Program-made: the position numbers and the translations under genes
Part shown: in pieces, positions 3,334 through 63,685 of the stretch
How positions within the stretch are numbered: the stretch's first letter is position 1
How the letters are laid out: each line of letters begins with the position of its first letter
NCBI RefSeq assembly: GCF_003925875.1
Contig: NZ_AP019309.1
Span: 1 to 64,000, forward strand
DNA: 64,000 bases
From: Intestinibaculum porci
Lineage (GTDB): Bacteria; Bacillota_I; Bacilli_A; Erysipelotrichales; Coprobacillaceae
Direction: 5' to 3'
The notes under the pieces: model-generated
Told to the model about the DNA's origin: nothing
Seen by the model: the letters and a program-made list of their open reading frames with translations, nothing else
Database searches by the model: none

Positions 3334-6365
<3,032 letters not shown>

Positions 6366-6377
6366 TAGGAGGACGTC

Positions 6378-12515: not shown

Positions 12516-12521
12516 TTTCCT

Positions 12522-12602
12522 TGCCATTACAATAGACATATCCGAACCATGTCAGGACCGGAAGGTAGCAGCATTAAGGATCCCTGTTTATGTGTGATGG
12601 CA
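12522..12602 (+). ncRNA. ffs: Small signal recognition particle RNA (4.5S type)
   Basis: This RNA pairs with Ffh to target nascent membrane proteins. The conserved apical domain is present: GTCAGGACCGGAAGGTAGCA at 12551-12570, including the GGAAG tetraloop and the A-rich asymmetric loop. The ends pair (TGCCAT at 12522-12527 with ATGGCA at 12597-12602) to close one long hairpin. A T-run follows. It is the short bacterial type without an Alu domain, unlike the roughly 270-nt Bacillus RNA. Confidence 0.92.
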
Positions 12603-12632
12603 CTTTTTTTATATTTAAGAGGAGTGATGGTG

Positions 12633-32010: not shown

Positions 32011-32363
32011 GGGGATGTCTTGGATTCGACAGGGGTCAGTTTGAATTAAGTCGCAGTCGTAGGAGTACGTTAAACTCACCAACAAATATCTGGAAACAGA
32101 ACAAATTACGCTTTCGCTTAGTAGTCGACATAGACTCGCGAATGCAGGCCTTTGAGATCTCATACTCGAAGATCCCTGTACTATAACCTAGTGAGATAAG
32201 GTGCGTGCGTTGTCTCGCGTACGTACTCGAAAATCTTGAGAATCGGTAAGTGAAAGACTGCCTGTGGATCGTAGCTTACTTAAATCTATTCGACAGGATA
32301 AACTGTAGAAGCTTAATATGGGACGGCTTTTGGACAGGGGTTCGATTCCCCTCATCTCCACCA
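32011..32363 (+). ncRNA. ssrA: Transfer-messenger RNA (tmRNA)
   Basis: The 5' GGGGATGTCTTGGATTCGAC and the 3' GGTTCGATTCCCCTCATCTC plus ACCA form the tRNA-like part, with an encoded CCA. By alignment with the Bacillus layout, the resume codon is GGA at 32092-32094. The tag then reads (A)GNRTNYAFA and ends with two TAG codons at 32119-32124. Pseudoknot-forming repeats fill the rest. The tag start is my inference; the YAFA end and tandem stops are seen directly. Confidence 0.95.
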
Positions 32364-47675: not shown

Positions 47676-48938
47676 GTGAAATACGAAGACAGAGAAAAGA
47701 TTGCTCTCTGGAAATTTGGGTATATTGCACCGGCTTATAATAATACTCACAGTTTCAGCTCCAATGCGGCCTATTTTAAGTCGCTGGAGGGCAAGAGCTT
47801 AAGAAACCCTGTCACTAATTCCGTACGAACGTACCACAAAGGAACCTTTGAAAACTGGCTCTCCCTTTACCGCAGATTTGGAATTGAGGGCCTGATGCCC
47901 GGGCAGCGGTCTGATGCAGGTACTTTCAGAGTGCTGAGTGATGATGCACAGCGGTTTATTATTGAACAGATTGAAAAATATCCCCGTATTCTTAACACAA
48001 TTGTCAGAAAAAGACTGATTGAAAACAAACTGATTGATGATTTAACATCGCAGTCCACTATTGATCGCTTTGTGAAAGGCTATCATGAGAAATGCCCTAA
48101 GAAGGATGAATATCATGACGGCAAGGACAGAAAGGCTTTTGAGTTCGAATTCGCTAATCAGATGTGGCAGGCTGATACCACTTATCTTAGTAAGATTGAC
48201 GGGCGTCAGACTTATCTGATGATGATTATCGATGATGCCTCTAGAATGCCTGTTGGCTTTGAGGTATTCTTCGCGGATAGTGGCGTTAATTTCCAGAAGG
48301 TGCTTAAAAATGCCGTAAAGACCTATGGCATTCCGTCCATGCTTCTTGTTGATAATGGAACACCATATTCTAATCATCAGCTTCAGATGATTTGCGCGAG
48401 ACTTGGCATTCAGCTTATTCATGCGCCTGTCCGTGACGGTGCAGCCAAGGGTAAAATTGAAAAATCATTTAGCACGCTGAAGAATTCCATCTATTACTGC
48501 GAGGACTGGAGTCAGTACAAGAGTCTGGAAGATATCAATTTAAGAGTCAACGAGTATATCTATACCGATTATAACACAAAATCCCATGGAACCACTGAAA
48601 CAGATAATGAAGGAAATCTTCTTAATGCGCGTGAAAGATATTTGAGGGATGCAGATCGCTTCATTTATAAGGACGAGGATGAAATTGATCAGATCTTCCT
48701 TCATCGGTATAAAAGAAAGGTGCGCACTGATGCAACTATCCGATACGATAATATCTTTTACGAAGTGCCTATGGAATATATTGGTGAATCAGTAACGCTT
48801 ATCATTGATCCTATTGATTTATCTAAGGCATGGATTAAGAGCGCAGAAGGAGCAGCGCTGCTTCCCGTCAGCGTTCTTGACCGCAAGGCCAACCGCAAAG
48901 TAAAGCGTCGTCAGCACATTAAGATTGGAGGTGAATAG
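47676..48938 (+). CDS. DDE (rve) transposase, TniA/Tn552/Mu-like
   Basis: A 420-residue transposase. The integrase core carries the DDE triad: Asp in WQADTTYLSK, Asp in LLVDNGTPYSN and Glu in KGKIEKSFSTLK, with 35 residues between the second Asp and the Glu. N-terminal winged/HTH domains and a C-terminal beta-barrel (Mu_transpos_C-like) complete it. It starts with GTG after AAGGAG. It overlaps the AAA ATPase gene by 14 nt, the TniA-TniB arrangement. Confidence 0.85.
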   Translation: MKYEDREKIALWKFGYIAPAYNNTHSFSSNAAYFKSLEGKSLRNPVTNSVRTYHKGTFENWLSLYRRFGIEGLMPGQRSDAGTFRVLSDDAQRFIIEQIEKYPRILNTIVRKRLIENKLIDDLTSQSTIDRFVKGYHEKCPKKDEYHDGKDRKAFEFEFANQMWQADTTYLSKIDGRQTYLMMIIDDASRMPVGFEVFFADSGVNFQKVLKNAVKTYGIPSMLLVDNGTPYSNHQLQMICARLGIQLIHAPVRDGAAKGKIEKSFSTLKNSIYYCEDWSQYKSLEDINLRVNEYIYTDYNTKSHGTTETDNEGNLLNARERYLRDADRFIYKDEDEIDQIFLHRYKRKVRTDATIRYDNIFYEVPMEYIGESVTLIIDPIDLSKAWIKSAEGAALLPVSVLDRKANRKVKRRQHIKIGGE

Positions 48939-49749
48939 TGCTATGGATGTGAAGACTTTCTACGGATTTAGTAAAATGCCTTTTCGGAAGGAGACAACAT
49001 ACACTAAACCATTTGAATCCGAGGATGTTGCGAATATGACAGACAGGCTCAAATATCTGAAAACAATTAAAGGAATTGGCGTCTTCACTGGTCCGCCCGG
49101 TTCCGGAAAAACATCAATTGTAAGGGATTATGTAAACAAGCTTAACCGATCGCTGTACCATGTTATCTATATTGCCATGACGACAGTAACGGCTACTGAA
49201 TTTCTTAGACAGGTTGCCTATGGGCTGGGGCTGGAGCCAAAAAACCGCAAGTGTGATCTTTTTAAGCAGATTCACGAGACTATTGAGAGCCTTTCAGTTG
49301 ACCGCAAAGTAACACCTGTATTGATTCTGGATGAAGCACAGTATTTACACAATGCGATTCTTCATGACATTAAGATGCTTCTGAATTTTGACTTTGACTC
49401 CAAGAACAGAATGATTCTTATTTTCGTTGGAGAATCAGGTTTTAACGGTATTCTTGGCAAGAGAGTGCATGATGCCCTCAGACAGCGCGTTGTGATTAAT
49501 TATGATATGCAGGGGCTTCAGAAAAAGGAGGCCGAAGCCTATGTAAAGCACTGTCTCAAGGAATGCGGCTGCCGCGAGCCAGTCTTTTCTCCTGAAGCTA
49601 TTAACGCCGCCTGGGAGATCGGAAACGGCTCCGTAAGACGAATGAACAATATTCTTGAAAAGGCCCTTATTGAGGGCGCAAATCGCAAAGAAAAGCCTAT
49701 TGGAACAGATACGATTCTGATGGCACAGCAGGAGGTTGAACTGGGATGA
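48925..49749 (+). CDS. AAA ATPase, TniB/ExeA-like transposition partner
   Basis: A 274-residue AAA+ protein. Walker A is GPPGSGKTS near residue 53 and Walker B is VLILDEAQYL near residue 135. A GVFTGPPGSGKT context and FLRQVAYGLG match the ExeA/TniB/MuB family, which binds target DNA and activates the DDE transposase. An ATG a few codons downstream (48943) gives the usual MDVKTFYGFSKMPF start. It is translationally coupled to genes on both sides. Confidence 0.82.
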   Translation: MEVNSAMDVKTFYGFSKMPFRKETTYTKPFESEDVANMTDRLKYLKTIKGIGVFTGPPGSGKTSIVRDYVNKLNRSLYHVIYIAMTTVTATEFLRQVAYGLGLEPKNRKCDLFKQIHETIESLSVDRKVTPVLILDEAQYLHNAILHDIKMLLNFDFDSKNRMILIFVGESGFNGILGKRVHDALRQRVVINYDMQGLQKKEAEAYVKHCLKECGCREPVFSPEAINAAWEIGNGSVRRMNNILEKALIEGANRKEKPIGTDTILMAQQEVELG

Positions 49750-50024
49750 TTAAAACACTTGATGAAATTATCTATTACCCTTCAACCAGGAAAGTAATTA
49801 CTGAGGAGCTTCGTTCAGCGATTGGCCTTTATCAGAAGCACGGCATGACTAATGATCAGTTCTACTTTCTGATTGATCATTATGTTCAGAATTTCTCCTA
49901 TCTGCTGTTCAGTGACGATTATGAAATTCATAATACGATCAAGTCACATCTTGGAAGCAGAAATGTCAGAATGCTGGAAGCTGTTATTTCTGAGATTAAA
50001 AAAACAAGAGAGGAGAAAGCATAG
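49746..50024 (+). CDS. Small helical protein of the transposon (92 residues)
   Basis: It starts in an ATGA overlap with the ATPase gene. The sequence (MIKTLDEIIYYPSTRKVITE onward) is predicted helical, with a Lys/Arg/Glu-rich end. No domain is recognised. In related transposons the third position often holds a target-site-selection protein (TniQ), but this is far shorter and has no zinc motif, so that role is not claimed. The coupling argues it belongs to the transposition operon. Confidence 0.6.
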   Translation: MIKTLDEIIYYPSTRKVITEELRSAIGLYQKHGMTNDQFYFLIDHYVQNFSYLLFSDDYEIHNTIKSHLGSRNVRMLEAVISEIKKTREEKA

Positions 50025-50025
50025 C

Positions 50026-50325
50026 ATGAGTAATAAAATTAAAGAAATCAATAAAAAGATGAGATCTCTTCAGCAGAGTGTTGATCAGATTAGCAGTCTT
50101 GTCAAAGATACTAAGAGTATGACATATGCTGTTCATGATGAAGTATGCTATATTGATGAGCTTTGCGTCGTGCTTCGGGATATGCAGATCCAGATTGAAA
50201 GACTCGAAGGAAAGGTTGACTACCTTTATAAATCCGAAAGAGCCAAGAACACCATCATGTCATCTCTCGATGATATTGATGAGGAAATGGTAGAAAACAT
50301 GTTCAATGAGGACTGCTGGTTCTAA
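50026..50325 (+). CDS. Small coiled-coil protein of the transposon (99 residues)
   Basis: ATG 50026 follows AGAGGAGAAAGC, one base after the previous stop. The protein is a near-continuous helix with heptads (IKEINKKMRSLQQSVDQI and LRDMQIQIERLEGKVDYLY) and an acidic end (DDIDEEMVENMF). No family is recognised. It is the last gene before the repeat-rich right end. Confidence 0.6.
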   Translation: MSNKIKEINKKMRSLQQSVDQISSLVKDTKSMTYAVHDEVCYIDELCVVLRDMQIQIERLEGKVDYLYKSERAKNTIMSSLDDIDEEMVENMFNEDCWF

Positions 50326-52865: not shown

Positions 52866-54446
52866 TCAGGAGAGATCTTCCCCTGAGAATATTTCTTTTA
52901 CCGTTATTGGATCACCTTCATAAAGTCGTATCATTGCATAGATCTCATTTATTCCGTTTTTCCTGCAGGTTTCTATATACGTTTTGGCATCTGCGTAATA
53001 CTGAGCGTTTTGAATATTTTGGAACTGTCCTGATGATCGCATATGGCTTTTTACGACTCTAAGTCCGCGTTCTGCGCAATTATTGGTTGTCGGAAGAGTG
53101 AAATCATTTACCCAAGCAAAGTAATTATCATAATAATCACGTATACGCTTAATTAGCGTCTTCTCGGATCTTCCAAAGTATGCATCATAATCTTTTTTGT
53201 TTCTCTTTTCCGCTCGGTTGAGTATATCATTAACTTTTTTGTTAAAGTTTTCAATAAATTCATCACTAAAGCGAGTCTCTCCCTTGTTTATGGCTTCTTT
53301 GCGTTTGTGGATGGTATCGGAAATAAGATCTTTCAGTTCCATAAGCTCATCATGTTTTGTATCAATAGCGATTTTTTTGAGGTCACGCTGAAGGTGCTGA
53401 TTGCATTCAAGGTTGCCAAACTTGAATTTAGCGTTATAGTTCACTTTATTGTGATCATGCATCGTTTTTTGCTCTTCAGTGAGTAGTGTTAGGACTTTGT
53501 CTTCTTCAATCCCTTCAAGATCTTTCTTCTCATGAGCCGTATAATATGAGAGTGTTTCATCTCCGTAAAAGCGCAGGCAGCCTTTCTTTGTATTAATATT
53601 GATAACAGTGTCATCCCAATATACGAGAGTTCTTTGGAGCATTAGATTCTTTAAAACTATACGGAACTCAGATAACTTTTTTGATGCAATCATAGGAAGT
53701 TTTGCAAGGTAGCCTTCTGACGGACTTATTTCTCCGTTTGTGATCCCCTCAAAAAAGGTTTTAACCTTGTTAATAGGAACATTGCAGGTATTCATTAGCG
53801 ATAAGCCAACGGCCTGTACTGCCGTCCCATAGTGACAGGCTGATCTTTCATTAGGCTTCAGGCCAAGAAAAAATGTAGTCCCGCAGCTTCCGCATTTGTA
53901 TTGATAGAAAACCTTTTTGAGGTTTATAGGCTTGATGCTAATAGTTTTCTCATATACAGCTTTAGTTTTGCCGGTGAAAACAAGTTCATGAGAACCACAT
54001 TTCGGACACTCAGTTGCATCATCTGCCACATATTCAATTTCTTCGTCAATATCATCAGGAATACCGAGTTCACTTTTAGAATGTCCTGGCTGACCTCCAA
54101 TTTTTCTGTCAGTAGGCTCTCTGGAATTGATGCTTGAGTTATATTTTGCTTTTCCTATAGGAGTAGACGCAGTAGGAATACCAACGGTAGTTGAGTCATG
54201 ATTGCTTATGGCATTAAGATATTCAATCTTGTCTTTCAGTCTGTTAATTTCATCATTAAGATTTCTAATCATTTCATCTTTTTCAAGACAAAGCTGCTTT
54301 AATTTTGCGATTCTGTTATCCCTGTATTCAAGCTTCTGTTTTTTGGATTTCAGTTCTTCATTACAATCGTAAAGTCTTGTTTTAAGGTCACCAATCTTTT
54401 TGCATGCTTTATCATATTTTACTGATAGTGTTCCTAAAGAATCCAT
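52866..54446 (-). CDS. IS66-like transposase
   Basis: A 526-residue IS66-family transposase. A long N-terminal coiled coil (residues 1-95) is followed by the IS66 linker (KYNSSINSREPTDRKIGGQPGHSK), a zinc-finger region (CPKCGSHELVF ... YKCGSCGTTFF) and the DDE core with VYWDDTVININ and the C-terminal TTNNCAERGLRVVKSHMRSS. AACAAGGAG precedes the ATG. The usual TnpA and TnpB helpers are absent; instead a 120-residue protein precedes it by 14 nt. Confidence 0.85.
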   Translation of the reverse strand: MDSLGTLSVKYDKACKKIGDLKTRLYDCNEELKSKKQKLEYRDNRIAKLKQLCLEKDEMIRNLNDEINRLKDKIEYLNAISNHDSTTVGIPTASTPIGKAKYNSSINSREPTDRKIGGQPGHSKSELGIPDDIDEEIEYVADDATECPKCGSHELVFTGKTKAVYEKTISIKPINLKKVFYQYKCGSCGTTFFLGLKPNERSACHYGTAVQAVGLSLMNTCNVPINKVKTFFEGITNGEISPSEGYLAKLPMIASKKLSEFRIVLKNLMLQRTLVYWDDTVININTKKGCLRFYGDETLSYYTAHEKKDLEGIEEDKVLTLLTEEQKTMHDHNKVNYNAKFKFGNLECNQHLQRDLKKIAIDTKHDELMELKDLISDTIHKRKEAINKGETRFSDEFIENFNKKVNDILNRAEKRNKKDYDAYFGRSEKTLIKRIRDYYDNYFAWVNDFTLPTTNNCAERGLRVVKSHMRSSGQFQNIQNAQYYADAKTYIETCRKNGINEIYAMIRLYEGDPITVKEIFSGEDLS

Positions 54447-54460
54447 TGATTTACTCCTTG

Positions 54461-54823
54461 TTAATCATCATTATTAAGAATTGATTCAATTCTATTGATC
54501 TTGCTGGTAAGCTTTCTATTAGCCGCCTTAAGCTGTTTGATCTCATCATCTCTGCTTGCAATAATTTTTTGCATATCCTCAACCATCTTTTTATAGGTTC
54601 TTCTGCCGCTTGCTTTTTCTTCATTTTCAGCTGTATTTTTATCAGGATTAGGCTTTCTCCCTCGCTTTTTGCTTGAAGGAATAATTTCTCCAGTTTCCTC
54701 GTCTACAACGCCAAGGTATTTGCGTTTTGCTCTAGGCTGTTTGAGCTCAGGATTCCAAACTGAAACAGATTCATAAGCATATTTCTTGCCAGTTTTCTTG
54801 TTTGTCACATAAACAATTGCCAT
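54461..54823 (-). CDS. Small accessory protein of the IS66-like element
   Basis: A 120-residue basic protein. The N-terminal half (YAYESVSVWNPELKQPRAKR, then KYLGVVDEETGEIIP) resembles the first domain of other transposase families (IS1634/IS4-type). The second half is a coiled coil (MQKIIASRDDEIKQLKAANR). It is on the same strand and 14 nt ahead of the IS66 transposase, so it is probably part of the same two-gene element. Its role is unknown. Confidence 0.65.
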   Translation of the reverse strand: MAIVYVTNKKTGKKYAYESVSVWNPELKQPRAKRKYLGVVDEETGEIIPSSKKRGRKPNPDKNTAENEEKASGRRTYKKMVEDMQKIIASRDDEIKQLKAANRKLTSKINRIESILNNDD

Positions 54824-55834
54824 CTTTTCTCACCCCCTTGTTACTATATACAGTATATCATATAACTAGCTTAAAATAAATAGTAATTTACATATAATTT
54901 AAATTTATTAGAGACTATGTTTGCTGAAATTATCAAGAAAAAGAGAATACTTTTTTGGTTGTCAGGAATAAGACACTTGAATTGTTAATACATGACTATA
55001 AATCACTTTAAAAGTTATAATAAAAGGGTATCCCATATATGGATATACCCCTAAATAAAGACATTATTCAATTTTTAATCTTTCAGCACTGTGAATAGTA
55101 ACCATCTTGTTTTTCCATCTCTTACGGGCAGTAGCAAAGCCAGGCGAGCCAGTCAACGGTCAAGATGAACGGCGCTTTCAGCGCCGCCGTTGACAGTCTC
55201 GCCCGTCTTTGCTAATGGGTAATCAAGGCGGGAAAGCCATTTTAGGGCTTTCCCGCCCATTTCAATTTTGGGAGAAGAAAGGCCCCAAAATGAACGAGTG
55301 CGGCCAAACACTTTTAGGGATTGGCCACCTTGTCCACCCATCCAGCGGGGCGGCGGGGAACGGTCAAGGCCGGGCGTCAGCCCATTCATTTCAGCCTTGA
55401 CGGTTTCCTGCCGTCCTGCTACTTTTCCCGGAGTGTGGCCACACATCTGGTCACGGTGTCCAGAGCTTTGGGACTTTTTGTCCCATAGGCCGGGGGCGGA
55501 GGACGAGGGACGGGGGCTTTCATAATACGCCCTGTCTGCTGCTGAAATCAGCCCTTTGTTTCCGGCTTACCAGCCCCAAACAAAGCCCTGCTTTCCTGCC
55601 GCGTCAAATGCCCTTGCCCTCCCCGGCGGCAACGGTATTTTCAGGGCAACGCCGACAGAGCGTATAACACACTACACTTTGCTCCGCAAAGTCGTGTGCC
55701 AAATGGGGCGCTGCCCCCTTTGGAAACCCCCGCAACAAACAGGTGCTATGCACCCAGCCGGGAGCATAGCGCCGTTTGTTGTCAGCAGCCCGTTTCACGG
55801 TCTGCGTGTAGTTCCTTGTAAACTGACCTAAGAA
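54824..55834. other. Non-coding IS end and GC-rich remnant of an integrative element
   Basis: 54824-55084 is AT-rich. 55085-55834 is GC-rich with strong hairpins: GGCGCTTTCAGCGCC near 55170 and a GCGGGAAAGCC / GGCTTTCCCGC pair at about 55227-55257. Reading frames here are short, overlap on both strands and have no ribosome sites, so I call no gene. The texture matches non-coding DNA of Tn1549-like elements. Confidence 0.5.
55660..55705. other. oriT-like inverted repeat
   Basis: GTATAACACACTACACTTTG precedes a perfect ACTTTGC-TCC-GCAAAGT hairpin (about 55675-55691), followed by CGTGTGCC. A short perfect hairpin next to a conserved single-strand nick region is the usual oriT layout. I associate this string with mobilisable elements of gut Clostridia but cannot verify it. 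No intact relaxase is nearby. Confidence 0.35.
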
Positions 55835-56638
55835 TAAGTTATAGACTCTATTTTATTTTTGCGACTTTTTTCGTTTGAAATTCGGTGATAGGATAAGCGG
55901 CGGAGGAAAAATGTGAAAAAAATCCTCACAGGGCAAACACATGAGAAAAATAGGTGATGAATGAGGTATAACCAATTAGAAACAATTTCTCTATTGGATA
56001 ATCTTATTTTCAATAACCTATCATAAAATGAGAGATTATAGAATGAATTTTTAGGCTCATCCGCCATATTAATGTTTTATCCTGGAAAAGAGCCTAAAAA
56101 AATTTATATTAGCGGTCATATATAAACAGTATTCGAACATTTATGGTTAAGAAATGTGACCTCTGCTTCTATGATCTTCTGATTATTAAAGAATATAAAA
56201 AAGACTTACTCACGGCAATGAATAAGTCTCAAAAGAATAACCTACGGGAAAAGTTATTCTTAATCGGCTAACGATCTTTATATTCATTAATAATCTTTCA
56301 GCGTTTGTATTGGTACGAAACAGAAAGGAGGCATCTCAATATTCCACGTTCTTGAATACGAGAATAAAAGATAGAACCTGGAAAATGAAACAGCCAGTTT
56401 ATATTACTGAACATAAGTTCTCTAGCTACTTCATATTATAGTATTTTCGAATTAGAAGTCAATAAGAAACCCGTTTCATTCGTCAGTAATTATAGAAGTA
56501 CGCATTGAGAAATATGTACAGGAAATCACTTATTTTTTACGCAGACAAAGTGCTTAAGAGATTAAGCATAATCAACTATCATTATATTTTTTATCTAATT
56601 GATAAGAAATGTTATTGTGAGAAAAGGGAGGACGAATT
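55835..56638. other. Non-coding spacer upstream of the pilus operon
   Basis: About 800 bases of AT-rich sequence, chromosomal in texture. It contains two hairpins at 56203-56261 described separately and an inverted repeat GCTTAA / TTAAGC at about 56552-56567. No convincing -35/-10 pair was found for the pilus genes. No gene is supported. Confidence 0.4.
56196..56261 (-). ncRNA. Candidate structured RNA or minus-strand terminator
   Basis: Two adjacent hairpins: AAGAATAAC / GTTATTCTT (56233-56241 with 56253-56261) and GACTTACTCA / TGAATAAGTC (56203-56212 with 56219-56228). On the minus strand the second is followed directly by T6, so it would terminate a small minus-strand transcript. No known RNA family was recognised. 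Confidence 0.35.
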
Positions 56639-57160
56639 ATGACTTCTGTACAAAAGGAGAACATGAGACCTACACTCTTTCAGGAAATTATGTATCTGCT
56701 CATTAAAATTGGTTTTGTCTTACTTGTATTTGCATTAGCGCTGACATTTATCTTTGGTGCAATGCGTTACAACGCAGACAATATGAATCCCGCCATTTAT
56801 GAAGGAGATTTATTATTATTCTATCGACTCGACCACAACTATGCGCAAAAAGATGTCGTTGTTTTACGTCATCAGCATGTCCTTCAGGTGCAGCGAATCG
56901 TCGCTGTAGCGGGAGATGAAGTGAACATAACCAAAGAAGGGTTAATGGTTAACGGTTCTTACCAGCAGGAAGATCATATTTATTACAAAACGAAGCGCTA
57001 TGTCTCAAAAGTGAAATTTCCTATAAGATTAGGAGAAAATCAGGTCTTCGTCTTAAGCGATCAGCGCACGCAAGCAACTGATAGCCGTATCTATGGACCG
57101 GTATCTACCAAAGAGATATTAGGCAAAGTCATTTGTGATATTCGTCGTCGAAACATTTAG
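56639..57160 (+). CDS. SipA-like inactive signal peptidase I, pilus chaperone
   Basis: A 173-residue signal-peptidase-I fold protein with an N-terminal membrane span (about residues 20-40). The catalytic serine motif SMxP reads NMNP (Asn48), and the catalytic lysine before R-I-V reads Gln85 (QRIVAVAGDEV). Both catalytic residues are therefore missing. In streptococcal FCT pilus loci the homologous SipA is also catalytically dead and is needed for pilus polymerisation. AGGGAGGACG precedes the ATG. It heads the pilus operon, 25 nt before the major pilin. Confidence 0.85.
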   Translation: MTSVQKENMRPTLFQEIMYLLIKIGFVLLVFALALTFIFGAMRYNADNMNPAIYEGDLLLFYRLDHNYAQKDVVVLRHQHVLQVQRIVAVAGDEVNITKEGLMVNGSYQQEDHIYYKTKRYVSKVKFPIRLGENQVFVLSDQRTQATDSRIYGPVSTKEILGKVICDIRRRNI

Positions 57161-57185: not shown

Positions 57186-58496
57186 ATGAATAAGAAATAC
57201 TTAAAAGGACTTTTATCCTTAAGTTTATCAGGTTTAATGGCAGCATCTTTAGCAGCACCAGTTTTTGCGGCTACAGATACCAATGTGGAAGCTTACATTA
57301 CTAAGGAATTTGATATGCCTGTTGGCACTGAATTTACAAGTAAAACATTTAATTTCAGTCTAGGTGAATTACAAAAAGATGGTACAAAAATGACCGGAAA
57401 AAACGAAACACTAGAATCGAAGGAAATTACCATCAAGAAGGAAGACAATCACTTCGTAAGAAACAGTGATAGCAACAATGAAAAGAGATACAACAGCTAT
57501 TTACATTATACGGATCTTTTGAGTGATAGTGATAAAGAAGTTTTAACGAAAGACCCTGGTCAATACAGCTTTCTTATTACTGAAACTGCAGATCAACAGG
57601 TTCCTCCAACTACAGAAAATGGTGTTAAGCATACTACGAATTTGACATATTCAAAAGCTGTATATAAAGCTGAGCTTTATGTAAAAACAAAAACTGATGG
57701 TACTAACTATATTTCAAGTATTAAGGTCACTAAAGAAAAAGATGATACAGGCACGGAAATTACTTCAGTCAATGAAAAGAAGGTTGACCCATCAAAACCA
57801 GATGGTACTGATGATGGCAAAGGTGGATTAAGATTTGTCAATACTTTTACAGATAAGATTGAAACCACAGGAGATCCAGGTGAAATTCCAGATCCTGATC
57901 CAAAAAATCCAACAAACACAGATAATAGAGATAAAGTTTTATCAGTAGGTAAAATCGTAAATGGCGATTTAGCAGATAAAAATAAATACTTTGAATTCTC
58001 TGTTAAAGTAACCCAGCCTTCATTAGTCACTACAACAAATGAAACTTATAAAGCTAAGATCTTTAAAGCAGCTAATGGTGGACAGGATACTGATAAGACG
58101 AAAAACCCAAATATGGATGATAAAGGTGAATTTTCATTTACTAGCGGTAGTGATCCAGTAAAGGTTTATTTAGCACATGGTGAAAAATTAGTATTTGAAA
58201 ATTTATATGTAGGTACAGCATTTGAAGCACAGGAAACTGAAGCCAACAACCTTTATACACCATTAACGTATGTAAAATTCAATAGTGGTAATCCTGAAAC
58301 AAAATCACAGGGAAATGCAAATGTTACGGGTAATGTATCAGAAGGTACAGATACAGTTGTTGTAGTCAACACACGTAATTCAACTTCTCCAACAGGGATC
58401 GTTGTAAATAACTTACCTTACATCTTATTAGTATTAGGTGTTGTAGCTGGTTTTGCTGGTTATATCGCTTCTAAGAGAAGAAGAGAAGTAAGATAA
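57186..58496 (+). CDS. Major pilin, FctA/Spy0128-like, with two isopeptide domains
   Basis: A 436-residue surface protein. The signal peptide ends near residue 28 (APVFA). Domain 1 (about 33-225) pairs Lys40 (AYITKEF) with Asn219 (LRFVNTF). Domain 2 (about 252-398) pairs Lys256 (SVGKIVNG) with Asn395 (VVVNTRN). These positions fit intramolecular Lys-Asn isopeptide bonds. The sorting signal is SPTG (residues 401-404), a membrane span and a basic tail, close to the VPTG of streptococcal FctA and unlike LPXTG. GAGGTGAAAA precedes the start. Confidence 0.87.
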   Translation: MNKKYLKGLLSLSLSGLMAASLAAPVFAATDTNVEAYITKEFDMPVGTEFTSKTFNFSLGELQKDGTKMTGKNETLESKEITIKKEDNHFVRNSDSNNEKRYNSYLHYTDLLSDSDKEVLTKDPGQYSFLITETADQQVPPTTENGVKHTTNLTYSKAVYKAELYVKTKTDGTNYISSIKVTKEKDDTGTEITSVNEKKVDPSKPDGTDDGKGGLRFVNTFTDKIETTGDPGEIPDPDPKNPTNTDNRDKVLSVGKIVNGDLADKNKYFEFSVKVTQPSLVTTTNETYKAKIFKAANGGQDTDKTKNPNMDDKGEFSFTSGSDPVKVYLAHGEKLVFENLYVGTAFEAQETEANNLYTPLTYVKFNSGNPETKSQGNANVTGNVSEGTDTVVVVNTRNSTSPTGIVVNNLPYILLVLGVVAGFAGYIASKRRREVR

Positions 58497-58531: not shown

Positions 58532-59443
58532 ATGAGAGAAGAGCGAAGTATTAAAGCAGTACAGGGTATTTCATCCGCCTTTAACTTTACCCTTCTCATC
58601 ATACTGCTGTTACTTGGTTTATTAGGTATCTATGCTTTATGGGATAGTGCTTCACTCTATAGCAATGCGAGTCACAATCACTATAAAGACTATAAACCAC
58701 GCATCAGAGATAGCCGTAGTTTCGAGGATTATCAAAGAGCTAATCCTGATGTGATCGGTTGGCTGGACCTGTATGGAACGGGAGTCGATTATCCGATCGT
58801 TCATGGTCGGGATAATATGAAATACTTAAGTCATGCACCTGATGGCAAGTATAGTGCTTCAGGAAGTTTATACCTCGATTATCGCAATAACCCCAACTTT
58901 CTAGACTTTAATAACATCATTTTTGGTCATCACATGGACCAGCATATGATGTTTGGTGATCTCAGCAATTTCCTTACCCAACCCTATTTTGCGAAGCACC
59001 AGTATGGAAAGATCTATGCCAATCATCATTGGCAGGGACTTGATATTTATGCGGTGATTGAAGCGAATGCTTATGATACAAGCATTTATAATCCTGGGAT
59101 CGACGGTGATCAAAAACGGGAGTTTTATATACAGAATATTCAATCAAAAGCGAAATATCATCGATTAGAAAATGTCCAGCCCGCCGATCACATCATTTTA
59201 ATGAGTACCTGTCAGGGGGACTTAACCAATGGACGAATTGTTTTGGTGGCTAAAATCACGAAGAACATTCATAAAGATCCCTTTGCGCAAAAACAAGGAA
59301 TCTTTAATCTCTTTGATCATTATGGTTTATTAGATGAATTAAAACGTTGTCCATTATTAGTCTGGGCTATCCTAAACCTATTATGCTTATATCTTATTTT
59401 ATTTATCTATAACAAAGTTCATGAAAAGAGGAGAAGCACATGA
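58532..59443 (+). CDS. Class B sortase (pilus polymerase)
   Basis: A 303-residue membrane transpeptidase. It has an N-terminal span (about residues 18-36) and, unusually, a second one near the C-terminus (about 277-297). The active site is intact: His133/134 (FGHHMDQHM), Cys227 (MSTCQGD) and Arg235 (NGRIVLVAK). Class B membership follows from the VDYPIVHG and FGHHMD segments. In FCT-type loci the class B sortase joins FctA subunits, which fits its place right after the pilin. It overlaps the next gene by 4 nt (ATGA). Confidence 0.9.
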   Translation: MREERSIKAVQGISSAFNFTLLIILLLLGLLGIYALWDSASLYSNASHNHYKDYKPRIRDSRSFEDYQRANPDVIGWLDLYGTGVDYPIVHGRDNMKYLSHAPDGKYSASGSLYLDYRNNPNFLDFNNIIFGHHMDQHMMFGDLSNFLTQPYFAKHQYGKIYANHHWQGLDIYAVIEANAYDTSIYNPGIDGDQKREFYIQNIQSKAKYHRLENVQPADHIILMSTCQGDLTNGRIVLVAKITKNIHKDPFAQKQGIFNLFDHYGLLDELKRCPLLVWAILNLLCLYLILFIYNKVHEKRRST

Positions 59444-60213
59444 AATATCGTATCTTATCAGGATTCATCGTCTTCTCAATATTGATGGGAAGCAGCTGCG
59501 TCGTTCACGCGAAAGGGGGAACAAGTACGCAGCTTGTTATTTATCAGCAGTCTTCCTGGAAAGGCTGTAAGAAGCCAAGGATGGTGATGGTGTATCGTTT
59601 AAAAACATCATCGCAGTCATCATATTATCATGATTACAAAATGAAATTCAGTGATCGTAAGATGGGCATTACGATGTATTACAATAAGCCAGGTCTTTAT
59701 TCCTATTATGTATCACAAAATTGTCATTCACATTATAAAGGGATGAAATATGATCGTAATAGATATCATGTGCGGGTAATGGTACGTTATGCCAATGGAC
59801 AGCTCTTGGCTGAATCAGAATTACCAGTTAATAAAAGAGGTTTTAAGGAAGAATCCATGACTTTCCATAATTCTTATCACAAGAAGAAGCCTAAGAATCC
59901 AAGTAAACAGGTACTTCATAAAAAAGAGAATCCTATTCCTAAAAAGCTTCAGGAATATCCGCCTAATAAGGAAAAACAAAAACATAAACATAAAAATAGC
60001 ATACCTAATCACCAAAAAGAATATCCACCAGAAAAGGGTCATCATAGTCAGAATAACCCTTTGACTACCCATAAGGTGAAAACTGGTGATAACACAGATA
60101 TTAAGCTCTATGTTATTGGTATGATGTCTTCATTCATTATTTTATTGTTGTGTATTGCTTTGGAAAAGAGGAAGAAGGAAAAAGACGATGAAAATCAAAA
60201 AGTTAAGTCATAA
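59440..60213 (+). CDS. Minor pilin, FctB-like (putative pilus base)
   Basis: A 257-residue exported protein. The signal peptide ends near VVHA (residue 24). One Ig-like domain follows (about 30-145), closing with MTFHNSYHKKK, the Asn-containing strand of isopeptide domains. A Lys/Pro-rich stalk (PKNPSKQVLH, EYPP repeated twice) leads to the sorting signal VKTGD, a membrane span and a basic tail. A Pro-rich stem before an atypical sorting motif matches cell-wall-anchoring FctB proteins. The 3' end overlaps the adhesin start by 26 nt. Confidence 0.75.
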   Translation: MKYRILSGFIVFSILMGSSCVVHAKGGTSTQLVIYQQSSWKGCKKPRMVMVYRLKTSSQSSYYHDYKMKFSDRKMGITMYYNKPGLYSYYVSQNCHSHYKGMKYDRNRYHVRVMVRYANGQLLAESELPVNKRGFKEESMTFHNSYHKKKPKNPSKQVLHKKENPIPKKLQEYPPNKEKQKHKHKNSIPNHQKEYPPEKGHHSQNNPLTTHKVKTGDNTDIKLYVIGMMSSFIILLLCIALEKRKKEKDDENQKVKS

Positions 60214-63200
60214 AAAATATGTCTGTATCTTTATTCTTGCCGTCAGTATGCTTTTTTGCATAGGTGCTTTTCACGGCCGTCAGATTGCTCATGCGACAGA
60301 TAATCAGCCAGTCCAAAGTGATAGTGCCGATCAGTTAGATAGTGCTGATCAGTTAGATAGTGCAGATCAAAAGACTTCTTCATTTACTTTTCAAAAGAAA
60401 ATGTCTTTTAAAGTCTTAAGAGCCGCTGTTACAAATGGTCAGATTGATACTGAAAAGAAAGTTCCTGTGACCACATATATTGGCGATACAAAGCAAGAAG
60501 AACCAAAAAACATACCAGTCGGTGTCATTAATGAAAATACGGTACCAAAAATAACAGGTGCCCGTTTTGTTGGGGCTTATGTAGAATTTCCGGACACTGG
60601 TAAAGAAACACAAATCTACTATACGAACGTTTATACAGAAAAATCAGATACTGGTGATCAAAGTAAAACTTATACATACTATGCGTATTCACCAACACCT
60701 GAAACAGGTGTACTGCTTGAGGGAGATGCATATATAAAGCTGAAATATGAAGCAGCCTATGATATCTCTTATCGCGTTGAAAATAAGTTAGGAAAAGAAT
60801 TGTCTGATGGACTACAGGAAGGAGATACTGGTGGCTATTTTGTTACACCAACAACCAAACTTGAAACGGGCAATCAATTGAATATTCATTTTGTTGAGGG
60901 AAAAATCCGTGGAAATACGGGTTCTTATCATTTGCGAAAACTATATAAATCACCAACATCTGATCTAACTAAAAAGACGCCTATTTCTTTTGATAGTGAT
61001 GATTCAGGGAAAACTGATATCACTCAGGCGACAACAATTGTTGCAGTGGTGGATCAAGATCAAACATATCGTATGCACGTAGTGAATCCGTTTGCGGATC
61101 ATCATGGCCATATTTGCTGGAAAGGATACTCTGGCTGGACATATAACAGCACGACTGGGAAGTTTGAAGGAAATTGGACAGATGGGCCAACTGATGGAGA
61201 CACAGATATGCCTATTTACGCCCTTCCTCAAATATGCAATCCAGATGATCCTAAGGCGGTTACGGTTGTAAAAGAGGCCAATGGTAAGGAACATGGCGTT
61301 TGTTATGCTGATGTGGGAAACAAGAATCAGACTTCTTACAATACAGAAGTCGATGCGAATGGGTTCCAGGATATCTTATATAATAATCAAGATAAATTTG
61401 ACTCTTATACGACACATGAGTTAAAGGATGAATCAGGCAATGTTGTAACCGCAGATAATCATCCTGCAACAACTACTGCAGCACCAGGTGGTACCTTTTA
61501 TTTTGTGATGTACTCACAGCGCGGAACAGAGTGGGAATTTTCACGTTTATCAATTAACGGAACAAATTTAAAGGCAGTCTATGATGGACAAGTTCATGAT
61601 ACGCCAATAGGGAATGGTATGATTGCTCATTTTAAGTACGATTCTTCTGAAAATGATGCTGATTCATATAGGGACTTACATCTAGAAAAAGATAGAAATG
61701 AAAGACATGCAAATTGGAGAAGCAAACAAAGATTGAAATTTGAGTGTTGGGTTTCTCATGCAAGCAGTGATATATATGTTGATTTTGACTGTGTAGAAAA
61801 AGAAACAGAATCGTTAACATTAACCAAAGCACAAGGTATTAAGAGAATTGTGGCAAGTTCCTATGATGAAGATCATCACGGTAGATTGTGGTGGGATAGT
61901 TTGTATAATGGACAGCCTTATTATCGTCAAGATGCACTTGGTAAGTGGATAGAAAAGAATAAAGAAGGAACAGATTCTCCAAATTATGAATATACTGCAA
62001 GTCAAGATGAAGAAACGAATAACCTGCCAAAAGTATTGTTTACCGAAAAAGATCAAGATTCATGGCAGACCTCAGGTGGTACCCATTCAAAAATGGAGGA
62101 TGTAAACGATTATGAGGGTAAGCATAGATATTTGTATTATGATGCTTTGCCCGGATATGATGAACGAACGATAAATGTTAGTATAACGGGTGCACAAAAT
62201 GATGATGTTACAAATGGTCCAATTGGGCGAATGCAGCAAGGCTATTATAATGGGGATTCGGATAATCCGGTTAATAAAGCTTTAGACGAAGCTATTTCAA
62301 ATGATTATACAAATTATATTGATTATAAAAGTAGGAACATGCGCCATCGAAATATTGCAATTTCTATGGATCCTTATAAATACAAGGCAACTTATGATTT
62401 AGATGGCGGAACATTAAATGGTCAAGACAAGTATATAGATTCTCAAGAGTATACGATTGAAGAGGGTTCTAATCATATTTTGATGCCAACAGCGACACCC
62501 GTTAAAAAGGGTTATGCTTTCGTGGGATGGGAGTATGAGCCGCTTAATATCAAATATATAGACCAAAAAGATCAGTTAAGACAAGTGTTATCGCCAAATG
62601 ACAAATTTGAAATAAACGGTACAACCTATGATTATGGACTTGATAGGGTTGAAAAGACAATTTATTATTTTAAATATGTTTCTAATGGTCGCCTGATAGA
62701 GTCGTATACAAAACAACTAGCGTCGAAACCGGTTTATGTGGATAAAGATGGTGCTGATAACCATTTTGCTTTTAAAGCTTTATGGGTCAATAGAGATAAC
62801 CTTCCTGCTGGTAAAGATATTTATACAATTAAGACTTATAAACAAGTTACTTCTAAAGATTATGAATCTTTAAACAAGGATGAGAAATATCAGGATGAAA
62901 CTACTAAGAAATTATATAGGATTGTATCTTCTAATGATTATTTAGGAACAATTGATCAGACAATTATTGGGATCCCGCCTCAAGCGGATGATGGATACGT
63001 ATTTAATAAACAAGCAAGTACTGTGAAACTGACACATTTCAAAAAGACAGGAGCAAATCCTGAACCGGATACACTAAAATATTTCTATGATTTTGATGGT
63101 AGTCAGAATTTAACAATTAAACATGTTACAAGCGGTAATATGGGAGATCAAAATCAATCATTTGATGTCTATGTTACTTTGAAAGACAGTAAGGGCAATC

Positions 63201-63685
63201 CTTTTAATGGAGAGAAGGCTGTCGAAGGAACCAATGCCACAATATGGGGTGGAGCCAATACAACCGGTGCTAGTACAACTGGATCATTAAAGTTTGATAA
63301 TGGGATAGCTAAAATTAGTCTAAAAGGTAATCAAAAGTTGACTATTAAGAATGTTGATATTGGTTCTTATGATATTAAAGAATATTCTTCAGGTTTATAT
63401 ACAACCCAGTATGAGATTGATCAGCAAGGTAAGTCAAATAATGCTATTTCTAATGCATCTATTGTGAAGAACGGTAATCCTATTGTCACAATCTATAATG
63501 TACGTGATGTACCTGAAACAGGCATTTATATGCCAAATGATCATCCAGGACAAATGTTTGCTTTGTTACTGTTAGGAGCTGGAGCTTTCTATCTTGTCTA
63601 TAAGAAGAATGAACGACGAATTAAACGTATGATCTTAGTGTCAACGTTGAAAATTGAAGATATGATTAAAGTGCATCATAAATAA
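60188..63685 (+). CDS. Large pilus tip adhesin / ancillary pilin
   Basis: A 1165-residue surface protein. The signal peptide (MKIKKLSHKKYVCIFILAVS) is followed by a six-residue repeat region (SADQLD repeated near residues 45-62), a long unrecognised adhesin region (about 80-730), an InlB/Flg_new-type repeat (YDLDGGTLNGQ ... KKGYAFVGWEYEP, about 735-790), and a final Ig-like pilin domain ending in TIYNVRD. The sorting signal is VPETGIY with a membrane span and a basic tail. Two upstream frames start earlier at 60155, but ATG 60188 gives a proper signal peptide. It closes the pilus operon. Confidence 0.85.
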   Translation: MKIKKLSHKKYVCIFILAVSMLFCIGAFHGRQIAHATDNQPVQSDSADQLDSADQLDSADQKTSSFTFQKKMSFKVLRAAVTNGQIDTEKKVPVTTYIGDTKQEEPKNIPVGVINENTVPKITGARFVGAYVEFPDTGKETQIYYTNVYTEKSDTGDQSKTYTYYAYSPTPETGVLLEGDAYIKLKYEAAYDISYRVENKLGKELSDGLQEGDTGGYFVTPTTKLETGNQLNIHFVEGKIRGNTGSYHLRKLYKSPTSDLTKKTPISFDSDDSGKTDITQATTIVAVVDQDQTYRMHVVNPFADHHGHICWKGYSGWTYNSTTGKFEGNWTDGPTDGDTDMPIYALPQICNPDDPKAVTVVKEANGKEHGVCYADVGNKNQTSYNTEVDANGFQDILYNNQDKFDSYTTHELKDESGNVVTADNHPATTTAAPGGTFYFVMYSQRGTEWEFSRLSINGTNLKAVYDGQVHDTPIGNGMIAHFKYDSSENDADSYRDLHLEKDRNERHANWRSKQRLKFECWVSHASSDIYVDFDCVEKETESLTLTKAQGIKRIVASSYDEDHHGRLWWDSLYNGQPYYRQDALGKWIEKNKEGTDSPNYEYTASQDEETNNLPKVLFTEKDQDSWQTSGGTHSKMEDVNDYEGKHRYLYYDALPGYDERTINVSITGAQNDDVTNGPIGRMQQGYYNGDSDNPVNKALDEAISNDYTNYIDYKSRNMRHRNIAISMDPYKYKATYDLDGGTLNGQDKYIDSQEYTIEEGSNHILMPTATPVKKGYAFVGWEYEPLNIKYIDQKDQLRQVLSPNDKFEINGTTYDYGLDRVEKTIYYFKYVSNGRLIESYTKQLASKPVYVDKDGADNHFAFKALWVNRDNLPAGKDIYTIKTYKQVTSKDYESLNKDEKYQDETTKKLYRIVSSNDYLGTIDQTIIGIPPQADDGYVFNKQASTVKLTHFKKTGANPEPDTLKYFYDFDGSQNLTIKHVTSGNMGDQNQSFDVYVTLKDSKGNPFNGEKAVEGTNATIWGGANTTGASTTGSLKFDNGIAKISLKGNQKLTIKNVDIGSYDIKEYSSGLYTTQYEIDQQGKSNNAISNASIVKNGNPIVTIYNVRDVPETGIYMPNDHPGQMFALLLLGAGAFYLVYKKNERRIKRMILVSTLKIEDMIKVHHK
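60320..60370 (+). repeat. 18-bp tandem repeat in the adhesin gene
   Basis: GATAGTGCCGATCAGTTA occurs nearly three times (60320-60337, 60338-60355, 60356-60370 partial), with single-base changes at the sixth codon position. It encodes the DSADQL repeats just after the signal peptide. Copy number could vary by slippage. Confidence 0.85.

What the first reader, a model, noticed from the sequence alone, without database searches (positions are those of the whole stretch)
56639..57160. Pilus-linked signal peptidase with both catalytic residues lost (Asn48, Gln85)
Ser of SMxP is Asn, and Lys is Gln. Streptococcal SipA lost the same two positions with different substitutions and acts as an assembly factor. 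Independent or inherited loss here supports a conserved non-enzymatic role beyond streptococci.
Basis: partly seen in the sequence, partly recalled or inferred. Interest (0 to 1): 0.5.

Follow-up and report, generated by a model that had tools for sequence, protein, structure and literature searches.

The report
Dead signal peptidase in pilus operon
This gut-bacterium gene makes a signal-peptidase look-alike that has lost its cutting residues and, like the SipA protein of streptococci, most likely helps a class B sortase build pili; the same pairing turns up in other gut bacteria, once with the two proteins fused into one.

Summary
Confirmed: window ORF 56639-57160(+) is a peptidase-S26 protein with Asn48 and Gln85 where active signal peptidases have Ser and Lys. 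It is a SipA-family pilus assembly factor: best solved match S. pyogenes SipA (sequence E 1e-24; fold E 3e-11), in an operon with pilins and a class B sortase.

The loss is mostly inherited. On a 93-row tree the class-B-sortase-linked S26 proteins and streptococcal SipA lie on one side of a 100/99 branch. Of 62 linked proteins none has an intact dyad and 61 lack Lys, but 28 keep Ser: Lys loss marks the family, Ser loss recurs. A separate loss exists in class C loci, one in this genome.

New here: a natural sortase-SipA fusion in a related genome, with a second, cut-off one beside it; and, at equal diversity, the catalytic cleft is relaxed while constraint is gained in the membrane helix and adjoining strands. 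This favours a membrane-side sortase scaffold over a peptide-gripping cleft. Function was not tested.

The parts
56639..57160 (+). SipA-like pseudo-signal peptidase, 173 aa; N-terminal membrane helix (model 13-38), S26 domain, N48 and Q85 at the dyad positions; carries the SipA-clade residues K23, G40, L58, Y62, R63, T118, P128
56626..56631 (+). ribosome-binding-site-like GGGAGG, 7 bases before the ATG
   Evidence: read; not tested
57186..58496 (+). backbone (major) pilin, 436 aa, DUF7601 domain, sorting signal SPTGI plus hydrophobic tail; weak PDB matches to FctA-domain and PitB pilins (best E 9e-6)
   Evidence: 'backbone' is inference
58532..59443 (+). class B sortase (TIGR03064 164.4 bits, cut-off 153.75; best PDB 4y4q, then 3psq), catalytic His, Cys and Arg present, hydrophobic helices at both ends
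59440..60213 (+). minor, probably basal, pilin, 257 aa, FctA / streptococcal pilin isopeptide linkage domain, KTGDNT sorting-signal-like tail
   Evidence: 'basal' is inference
60155..63685 (+). large surface protein, probable tip adhesin, up to 1176 aa (an ATG at 60188 is the likelier start), DUF7601 domain, VPETGI sorting signal
   Evidence: 'tip' is inference

Best explanation
It is a SipA-family pilus assembly factor: a type I signal peptidase homologue, anchored by one N-terminal membrane helix, whose family lost catalysis in a common ancestor shared with streptococcal SipA and now works with the class B sortase of its operon to polymerise the backbone pilin. Shown here: the dyad loss, the operon, the common clade, SipA and sortase inherited together, and one natural fusion of the two. 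Inferred from streptococcal experiments: it is needed for polymerisation and does not cut. Most likely mechanism (inference): it is a membrane-side scaffold for the sortase. Its membrane helix and membrane-proximal strands, the parts that gained constraint, hold the sortase and the membrane-anchored tail of the pilin in position, making up for the lid that class B sortases lack. Signal-peptide removal is left to the genome's intact signal peptidases.
For: Closest solved sequence and fold are SipA. Operon content and class B sortase. Of 62 S26 proteins beside a class B sortase with both positions readable, 0 have Ser/Lys and 61 lack Lys. From the sortase side, 64 class B sortase places in 60 related genomes: 14 have an S26 gene beside them, all dyad-broken; of the other 50, 40 were inspected and none has an S26 gene in the stretch. 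One clade with 4n31, 100/99. Natural fusion: L212 5775-7169 is one 464-aa frame with a class B sortase (E 5e-78) and then a SipA-clade S26 domain (E 3e-42, dyad Ser/Arg), joined by two hydrophobic helices with a basic loop between them; the next frame, cut by the contig end, is a second sortase that runs on into a SipA-like helix, 50-53% identical to the first over residues 29-340. SipA and sortase distances correlate (Mantel rho 0.644; highest of 2000 permutations 0.195; same nearest neighbour in 40 of 56). S26-linked sortases need only 2 label changes on a class B tree (55 versus 39 rows). No residue replaces the nucleophile: position 48 holds S, D, G, T, A, N, E, M, Y, F or H, position 85 mostly G or R. 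Cleft positions other than the dyad are relaxed (11 against 134 columns, p 4e-6); helix and strand 18-43 and 58-64 gained constraint (33 against 112 columns, p 5e-4, set chosen after seeing the result). Literature: SipA is essential, and D61A, D61S, D61A/K98A and V99R keep polymerisation (PMC4049620).
Against: No experiment on this protein or, to my knowledge, on any non-streptococcal member. Young et al. found no binding of SipA to pilin, sortase or their peptides in vitro (PMC4049620), which tells against a simple scaffold, though that SipA lacked its membrane helix. They read the cleft as almost entirely conserved. T118 and P128, two of the strongest gains, lie outside the membrane-proximal strands, in or next to a part the model gets poorly (pLDDT under 50 at 114-122). 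Gains at K23 and G40 may reflect a different helix boundary rather than a partner. The fusion is known from one unnamed, 75% complete genome, and none of the 7 other genomes of its family searched has it. Only one streptococcal sequence was in the tree.
Confidence: 0.89

Rival explanations
1. SipA-like, but acting by peptide holding: the old signal-peptidase cleft still binds a pilin peptide (signal peptide or, in reverse, the sorting motif) without cutting it, as Young et al. proposed.
For: The crystal structure shows an open groove with a peptide bound (PMC4049620); the fold is kept; R86, R143, D148, S149 and R150 are invariant in 71 of 71 SipA-clade rows.
Against: Cleft positions 44, 53, 84, 140, 142 and 146 are among the ten most relaxed of 147 columns at matched diversity (test without the dyad columns p 4e-6). 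V99R, meant to block the cleft in FCT-2 SipA, had no effect (PMC4049620). No peptide binding was seen in vitro.
Confidence: 0.28
2. A cryptic peptidase: another residue supplies the nucleophile, so the protein still cuts pilin precursors.
For: T118 is Thr in 93% of the SipA clade against 32% of Ser/Lys proteins, and S149 and D148 are invariant in the clade; 28 of 62 linked proteins keep Ser48.
Against: S149 and D148 are nearly as conserved in Ser/Lys proteins (147 of 149 each), so they are not new. No residue is fixed at 48 or 85. K23, at the membrane helix, is the only Lys or His among the SipA-specific conserved columns listed. T118 lies in a low-confidence loop and its distance from the cleft was not measured. 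Streptococcal SipA shows no cleavage (PMC4049620).
Confidence: 0.04
3. A decaying pseudogene or a neutral passenger of the operon.
For: Both catalytic residues are gone.
Against: Open frame; purifying selection (dN/dS about 0.12 for the L041/L058 pair within the genus; the window pair has dN 0.32 with dS saturated); four SipA genes kept, each beside its own class B sortase, in one genome; 71 clade rows including the window and 4n31; a fusion to the sortase in a relative.
Confidence: 0.02

Closest known systems
Streptococcus pyogenes SipA/LepA (FCT-2, -3, -4 pili; PDB 4n31, 4k8w)
   Same: S26 fold, Ser and Lys lost at the same positions, pilus operon with class B sortase, order sipA - backbone - sortase, one side of a 100/99 branch (PMC4049620)
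   Different: Asn/Gln instead of Asp/Gly; 39-40% identity; Lys83 of SipA is Gln83 here; the large adhesin gene lies last instead of first
Streptococcus pneumoniae / mitis-group PI-2 SipA with PitB and SrtG1
   Same: PI-2 carries pitA, pitB, sipA and two sortases (PMC3178606 passages); the window pilin's weak PDB matches include PitB. That 4y4q is a PI-2 sortase and that 3psq is Spy0129 is recalled, not from a call
   Different: PI-2 SipA sequence was not compared here
Clostridium perfringens VR-10B (NE pilus) signal peptidase
   Same: signal peptidase gene with a class B sortase and three pilins (PMC8088525 passages)
   Different: its dyad state is not stated in the passages read and was not examined here
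S. agalactiae / S. suis homologue with apparently intact dyad
   Same: SipA homologue with an apparently intact dyad reported for both species (PMC4049620); a signal peptidase homologue in S. agalactiae PI-2b is reported as required for its pilus (PMC7900414 passages). Whether these are the same S. agalactiae gene I did not check
   Different: PI-2b uses SrtC1 and Srt2 (PMC5249243 passages); may resemble the class-C-linked S26 group here, which includes Ser/Lys members, rather than the SipA clade; not compared
Active type I signal peptidases (own L043-L045; SpsB, LepB)
   Same: fold, box E, R86, membrane anchor
   Different: Ser and Lys present; no class B sortase seen beside them

Membership tests
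SipA pilus assembly factor | Homology to type I signal peptidases (S26 fold) | tested here: met
   PF10502 83.5 bits; model (mean pLDDT 79.8) best matches 4n31, E 3e-11, TM 0.83 by target length
SipA pilus assembly factor | Catalytic Ser-Lys dyad lost | tested here: met
   N48/Q85
SipA pilus assembly factor | Encoded with pilins and a class B sortase | tested here: met
SipA pilus assembly factor | Groups with streptococcal SipA apart from active peptidases | tested here: met
   100/99 branch, 93 rows, both dyad columns left out; only one streptococcal sequence included
SipA pilus assembly factor | Required for pilus polymerisation | not testable with these tools
   needs a deletion experiment
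SipA pilus assembly factor | No peptidase activity | not testable with these tools
   inferred from residues only
Active type I signal peptidase (S26A) | Ser nucleophile in SMxP | tested here: not met
   Asn48
Active type I signal peptidase (S26A) | Lys general base before the invariant Arg | tested here: not met
   Gln85
Active type I signal peptidase (S26A) | Scores over the NCBIfam 'signal peptidase I' equivalog cut-off | tested here: met
   TIGR02227 99.4 bits against 47; the four other dyad-broken S26 proteins of this genome also pass, so annotation by that model would name all five active enzymes

The most novel reading that the evidence does not exclude
Dyad-less signal peptidase homologues are the general partner of pilin-polymerising class B sortases in both Bacillota and Actinomycetota, descend from one loss of the catalytic Lys, and act as a physical subunit of the sortase (fused to it in one relative) through a membrane-side face (helix with K23 and G40, strand 58-64 with Y62 and R63), not through the inherited peptide cleft; a second, class-C-type lineage has begun the same conversion separately.
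Probability: 0.45. Interest if true: 0.65.

Novelty: new member of a known kind. Interest (0 to 1): 0.5.

Why it matters
Why some Gram-positive pili need a dead signal peptidase together with a class B sortase is still called open in a 2021 review (PMC7900414, passages), and the experiments rest on streptococci. Here the pair appears as an inherited module in gut Bacillota and Coriobacteriia, and a natural sortase-SipA fusion says the two act as one unit; a fused protein also gives a tractable object for structure work. The comparison points away from the peptide cleft and names residues to test. It also shows that annotation by the NCBIfam model would call these proteins signal peptidase I, so counts of active peptidases in such genomes are too high (eight S26 genes here, three with a dyad).

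Tried and rejected
Rejected: active signal peptidase (dyad absent); pseudogene (open, constrained); 'both residues lost' as the family mark (28 of 62 keep Ser); fully convergent loss (one clade with SipA); fully shared loss (class C group separate; AU p 0.018, borderline because the group was named after the tree was seen). Led nowhere: viral contigs held no relative; plasmids gave two lepB-annotated hits at 24-30%; 392 genomes of the phylum sample searched with 4n31 gave matches in 8 genomes, all of them genomes already met, so streptococcal diversity rests on one sequence; promoter-like sites no more than in shuffles (32, mean 37.7); YN00 dN/dS failed for three of four gene pairs; looking for further fusions in the family of the fused genome gave none in 7 other genomes. 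A first pattern for the sortase Cys was wrong (3 of 56); by alignment Cys is present in 55 of 56.

The sortases of the second group, first labelled class C by likeness only, were confirmed in four loci. The check also brought out the fusion, for which I raised the confidence from 0.87 to 0.89, the novel case from 0.40 to 0.45 (interest if true 0.60 to 0.65) and the interest from 0.42 to 0.5.

Rows dropped or uncertain: of 64 linked entries, 4n31 (linkage known from the literature only) and the split L066 entry were left out to give 62; a few of the 62 are cut at a contig end, and L212 is the fusion itself. Of 24 contig-end entries, 16 are Ser/Lys and 8 broken. Of 136 entries with no sortase seen, many lie in stretches of only about 1.5 kb flank; the 6 that are not Ser/Lys are 2 misaligned, 2 SipA-clade (L190, L265), L209 and L218. 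The tree used 79 dyad-broken or class-C rows plus a random 30 Ser/Lys rows, less 16 near-copies or long branches. Ten of 64 class B sortase places were not inspected. Loci were mostly fetched by likeness to SipA-type proteins, so the linked set leans to SipA; the sortase-side search is the less biased test. In one search the sortase paired with L212 is the neighbouring frame, not the fused one. E. coli pocket positions are recalled and placed by numbering offsets. In one search some class C entries are duplicates (L390/L042, L392/L057, L420/L315).

Full report
1. The observation. The ORF at 56639-57160(+) codes for 173 aa and is a peptidase-S26 protein (PF10502, 83.5 bits). The comparison with S. 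pyogenes SipA (Asp48, Gly85) is also right (PMC4049620: I read part 1 of 8 of the text, passages, and part 1 of 2 of the Discussion).

2. Surroundings. Downstream on the same strand lie a backbone pilin (57186-58496, SPTGI signal), a class B sortase (58532-59443; TIGR03064 164.4 bits against 153.75; PDB best 4y4q, then 3psq), an FctA-domain minor pilin (59440-60213) and a large VPETG surface protein (60155-63685). This is the kind of content described for streptococcal FCT-2/3/4 operons. Named relatives with an S26 gene followed at 1.1-1.3 kb by a class B sortase include Faecalibacillus intestinalis (Coprobacillaceae, Bacillota), Catenisphaera (Erysipelotrichaceae), an uncultured Lachnospiraceae, Olsenella and Tractidigestivibacter (Coriobacteriia, Actinomycetota).

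3. One genome, eight S26 genes. The 3.21 Mb genome has eight. Three are Ser/Lys (L043, L044, L045). Five are broken: the window (N/Q), L039 (N/G), L040 (S/G) and L041 (S/G), each beside its own class B sortase, and L042 (A/R) beside a class C sortase in an LPxTG locus. All five pass the NCBIfam cut-off for 'signal peptidase I', so a name alone hides the loss.

4. The pattern at large. From the loci fetched, distinct S26 proteins were sorted by neighbours. Beside a class B sortase: 62 proteins with both positions readable (the window included), 0 with Ser/Lys; 61 lack Lys; 33 lack both; 28 keep Ser; one (Catenisphaera) keeps Lys with Met for Ser. With no sortase seen: 130 of 136 are Ser/Lys. 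These are not independent events, since the tree shows one origin; the point is that no intact dyad is seen among them. Because loci were fetched mainly by likeness to SipA, I also searched from the sortase side: 64 class B sortase places in 60 related genomes, 14 with an S26 neighbour, all broken; 40 of the other 50 inspected, none with an S26 gene; 10 not inspected.

5. Shared or convergent. A 93-row tree built without the two dyad columns puts the class-B-linked rows and 4n31 on one side of a branch with 100/99 support, with no Ser/Lys row among them (the quick 109-row tree agrees). Within that clade (60 rows) the Ser column changes between Ser and not-Ser at least 11 times and takes at least 21 changes over all letters; the Lys column takes at least 11. 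So the broken dyad, marked by Lys loss, is inherited, and Ser has drifted repeatedly. The window's Asn/Gln pair was seen only in it and its sister in G018. The class-C-type broken proteins L042, L057 and L218 sit elsewhere, beside Ser/Lys proteins of LPxTG loci; holding them together with the SipA clade is rejected at AU p 0.018, borderline for a group named after seeing the tree. L218 itself has LPxTG proteins beside it but no class C sortase in the stretch. A further search found this second group mixed: of 50 S26 rows, duplicates included, 39 are Ser/Lys and 11 are not (A/R, D/R, S/R, T/R, A/K).

6. A natural fusion. In genome G135, L212 5775-7169 is a single 464-aa frame that matches the class B sortase model (E 5e-78) and then the S26 model (E 3e-42); its S26 part lies in the SipA clade with Ser/Arg at the dyad. 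By hydropathy the order is helix 6-30, sortase, helix 252-285, a basic loop, helix 301-336, S26 domain, which would put both domains outside the membrane; the window sortase likewise has a helix near its end (271-297). Upstream lie a pilin (4403-5689) and a large surface protein. The next frame (7182-8290, cut by the contig end) is a second sortase that runs through a helix and a basic loop into a SipA-like helix and stops at the start of the S26 block, 50-53% identical to the first over residues 29-340. Two diverged copies with the same join argue against an assembly or reading error, but only one genome shows it, and the second copy is incomplete. Two literature searches for such a fusion listed no paper evidently about one (listings only).

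7. Partnership with the sortase. SipA and sortase distances correlate over 56 pairs (Spearman 0.644; highest of 2000 permutations 0.195), and the nearest neighbour is the same in 40 of 56. Part of this is common species history; that four diverged pairs in one genome show matching identities (0.34/0.32, 0.30/0.25, 0.31/0.33, 0.23/0.23, 0.30/0.32, 0.44/0.43) is not explained by that. The sortases keep His in 56, Cys in 55 and Arg in 55 of 56. On a tree of class B sortases the S26-linked ones need only 2 label changes. Gene order varies: sipA within 60 bases of the sortase in 11 of 56, over 400 bases apart in 45.

8. Where the constraint went. After thinning at 70% identity, 46 SipA-clade and 111 Ser/Lys proteins have nearly the same mean pairwise identity (0.384 and 0.379). 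The ten columns most relaxed in the SipA clade are 48, 113, 146, 44, 142, 85, 140, 84, 52 and 53, eight of them dyad or cleft positions. The dyad columns differ by construction; without them, 11 cleft columns still differ from 134 others at p 4e-6. The cleft set was chosen by E. coli numbering offsets, partly from memory. Gained constraint is largest at K23, T118, P128, R63, G40, L58 and F39; columns 18-43 and 58-64 together differ from the rest at p 5e-4, or 0.003 with the cleft set left out of the comparison, a set chosen after seeing the ranking. In the model 13-38 is the membrane helix and 39-43 and 58-62 are strands; by order these would be strands 1 and 2 of SipA, part of its membrane-associated sheet (PMC4049620 Figure 1 legend; the matching is inference). 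No new conserved nucleophile or base replaces the dyad. This fits the streptococcal mutants D61A, D61S, D61A/K98A and V99R, which still polymerised pili, and differs from the published reading that the cleft is almost entirely conserved.

9. Mechanism. Shown: family, operon, loss, co-inheritance, one natural fusion. From the literature: SipA is essential for polymerisation and shows no cleavage, and class B pilin sortases lack the class C lid (PMC4049620, PMC3019223 passages, PMC7900414 passages). Inferred: the protein is a membrane-side scaffold for the sortase and its pilin. The published failure to detect binding in vitro used SipA without its membrane helix, which is expected if the helix and the membrane-side sheet are the working part, but is also what no interaction would look like.

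10. What is known and what is new. Known: SipA, its lost dyad, its need, and its coincidence with class B sortases in streptococci; a signal peptidase gene with a class B sortase in C. perfringens VR-10B (PMC8088525 passages). My literature searches (open-licence PMC papers only) listed no survey of the dyad state outside streptococci; most subscription papers are not held, so this is weak evidence of novelty. New here as far as I can tell: the extent in Bacillota and Coriobacteriia, Lys loss rather than double loss as the common mark, the sortase-SipA fusion, the relaxed cleft with gained membrane-side constraint, and the second, class-C-type loss. The window protein itself is an ordinary new member of a known family.

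Noticed in passing
L212 (G135:C28) 5775-7169 and 7182-8290 (+): Natural fusion of a class B sortase with a SipA-like domain in one 464-aa frame, followed by a second, contig-cut frame of the same build; used as evidence in the report.
   Followed up: partly
L042 (own genome 489.8 kb), L057, L218, L391, L394: A second, separate change of the catalytic Lys (to Arg) in S26 proteins of LPxTG-type pilus loci, most beside a class C sortase; relatives in the order of the Lachnospiraceae genome G552 are mostly Ser/Lys, with sporadic S/R, T/R and A/K (L419, L424, L413).
   Followed up: partly
L061 (Catenisphaera adipataccumulans) 8001-8516: The only class-B-linked S26 protein seen with Lys at position 85, but with Met for Ser, nested among proteins with Arg there: may be a return to Lys without regained catalysis.
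   Followed up: partly
window 52866-54823 (-): IS66-type transposase (DDE_Tnp_IS66) and a small partner ORF just upstream of the pilus operon.
   Followed up: no
window 55000-55999: About 1 kb of higher G+C (0.49-0.50 against 0.30-0.40 around it) without a convincing gene, between the transposase and the pilus operon.
   Followed up: no
window 47676-50325 (+): ORFs that look like a transposase of the integrase type, an AAA-type ATPase and small ORFs: probably another mobile element (named from reading the translation, no search made).
   Followed up: no
L372 4417-9330 (-): A class B sortase match inside a 1637-aa open frame in a related genome: possible fusion of a sortase to a large protein of another kind.
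   Followed up: no
window 32011-32363 (+) and 12519-12608 (+): tmRNA and bacterial small SRP RNA, both over Rfam gathering scores.
   Followed up: no
window 56639-57160, residue 140 (E. coli Gly272): Gly in 148 of 149 Ser/Lys proteins but not Gly in 25 of 71 SipA-clade rows, consistent with the published idea that the catalytic Lys forbids a side chain there.
   Followed up: partly
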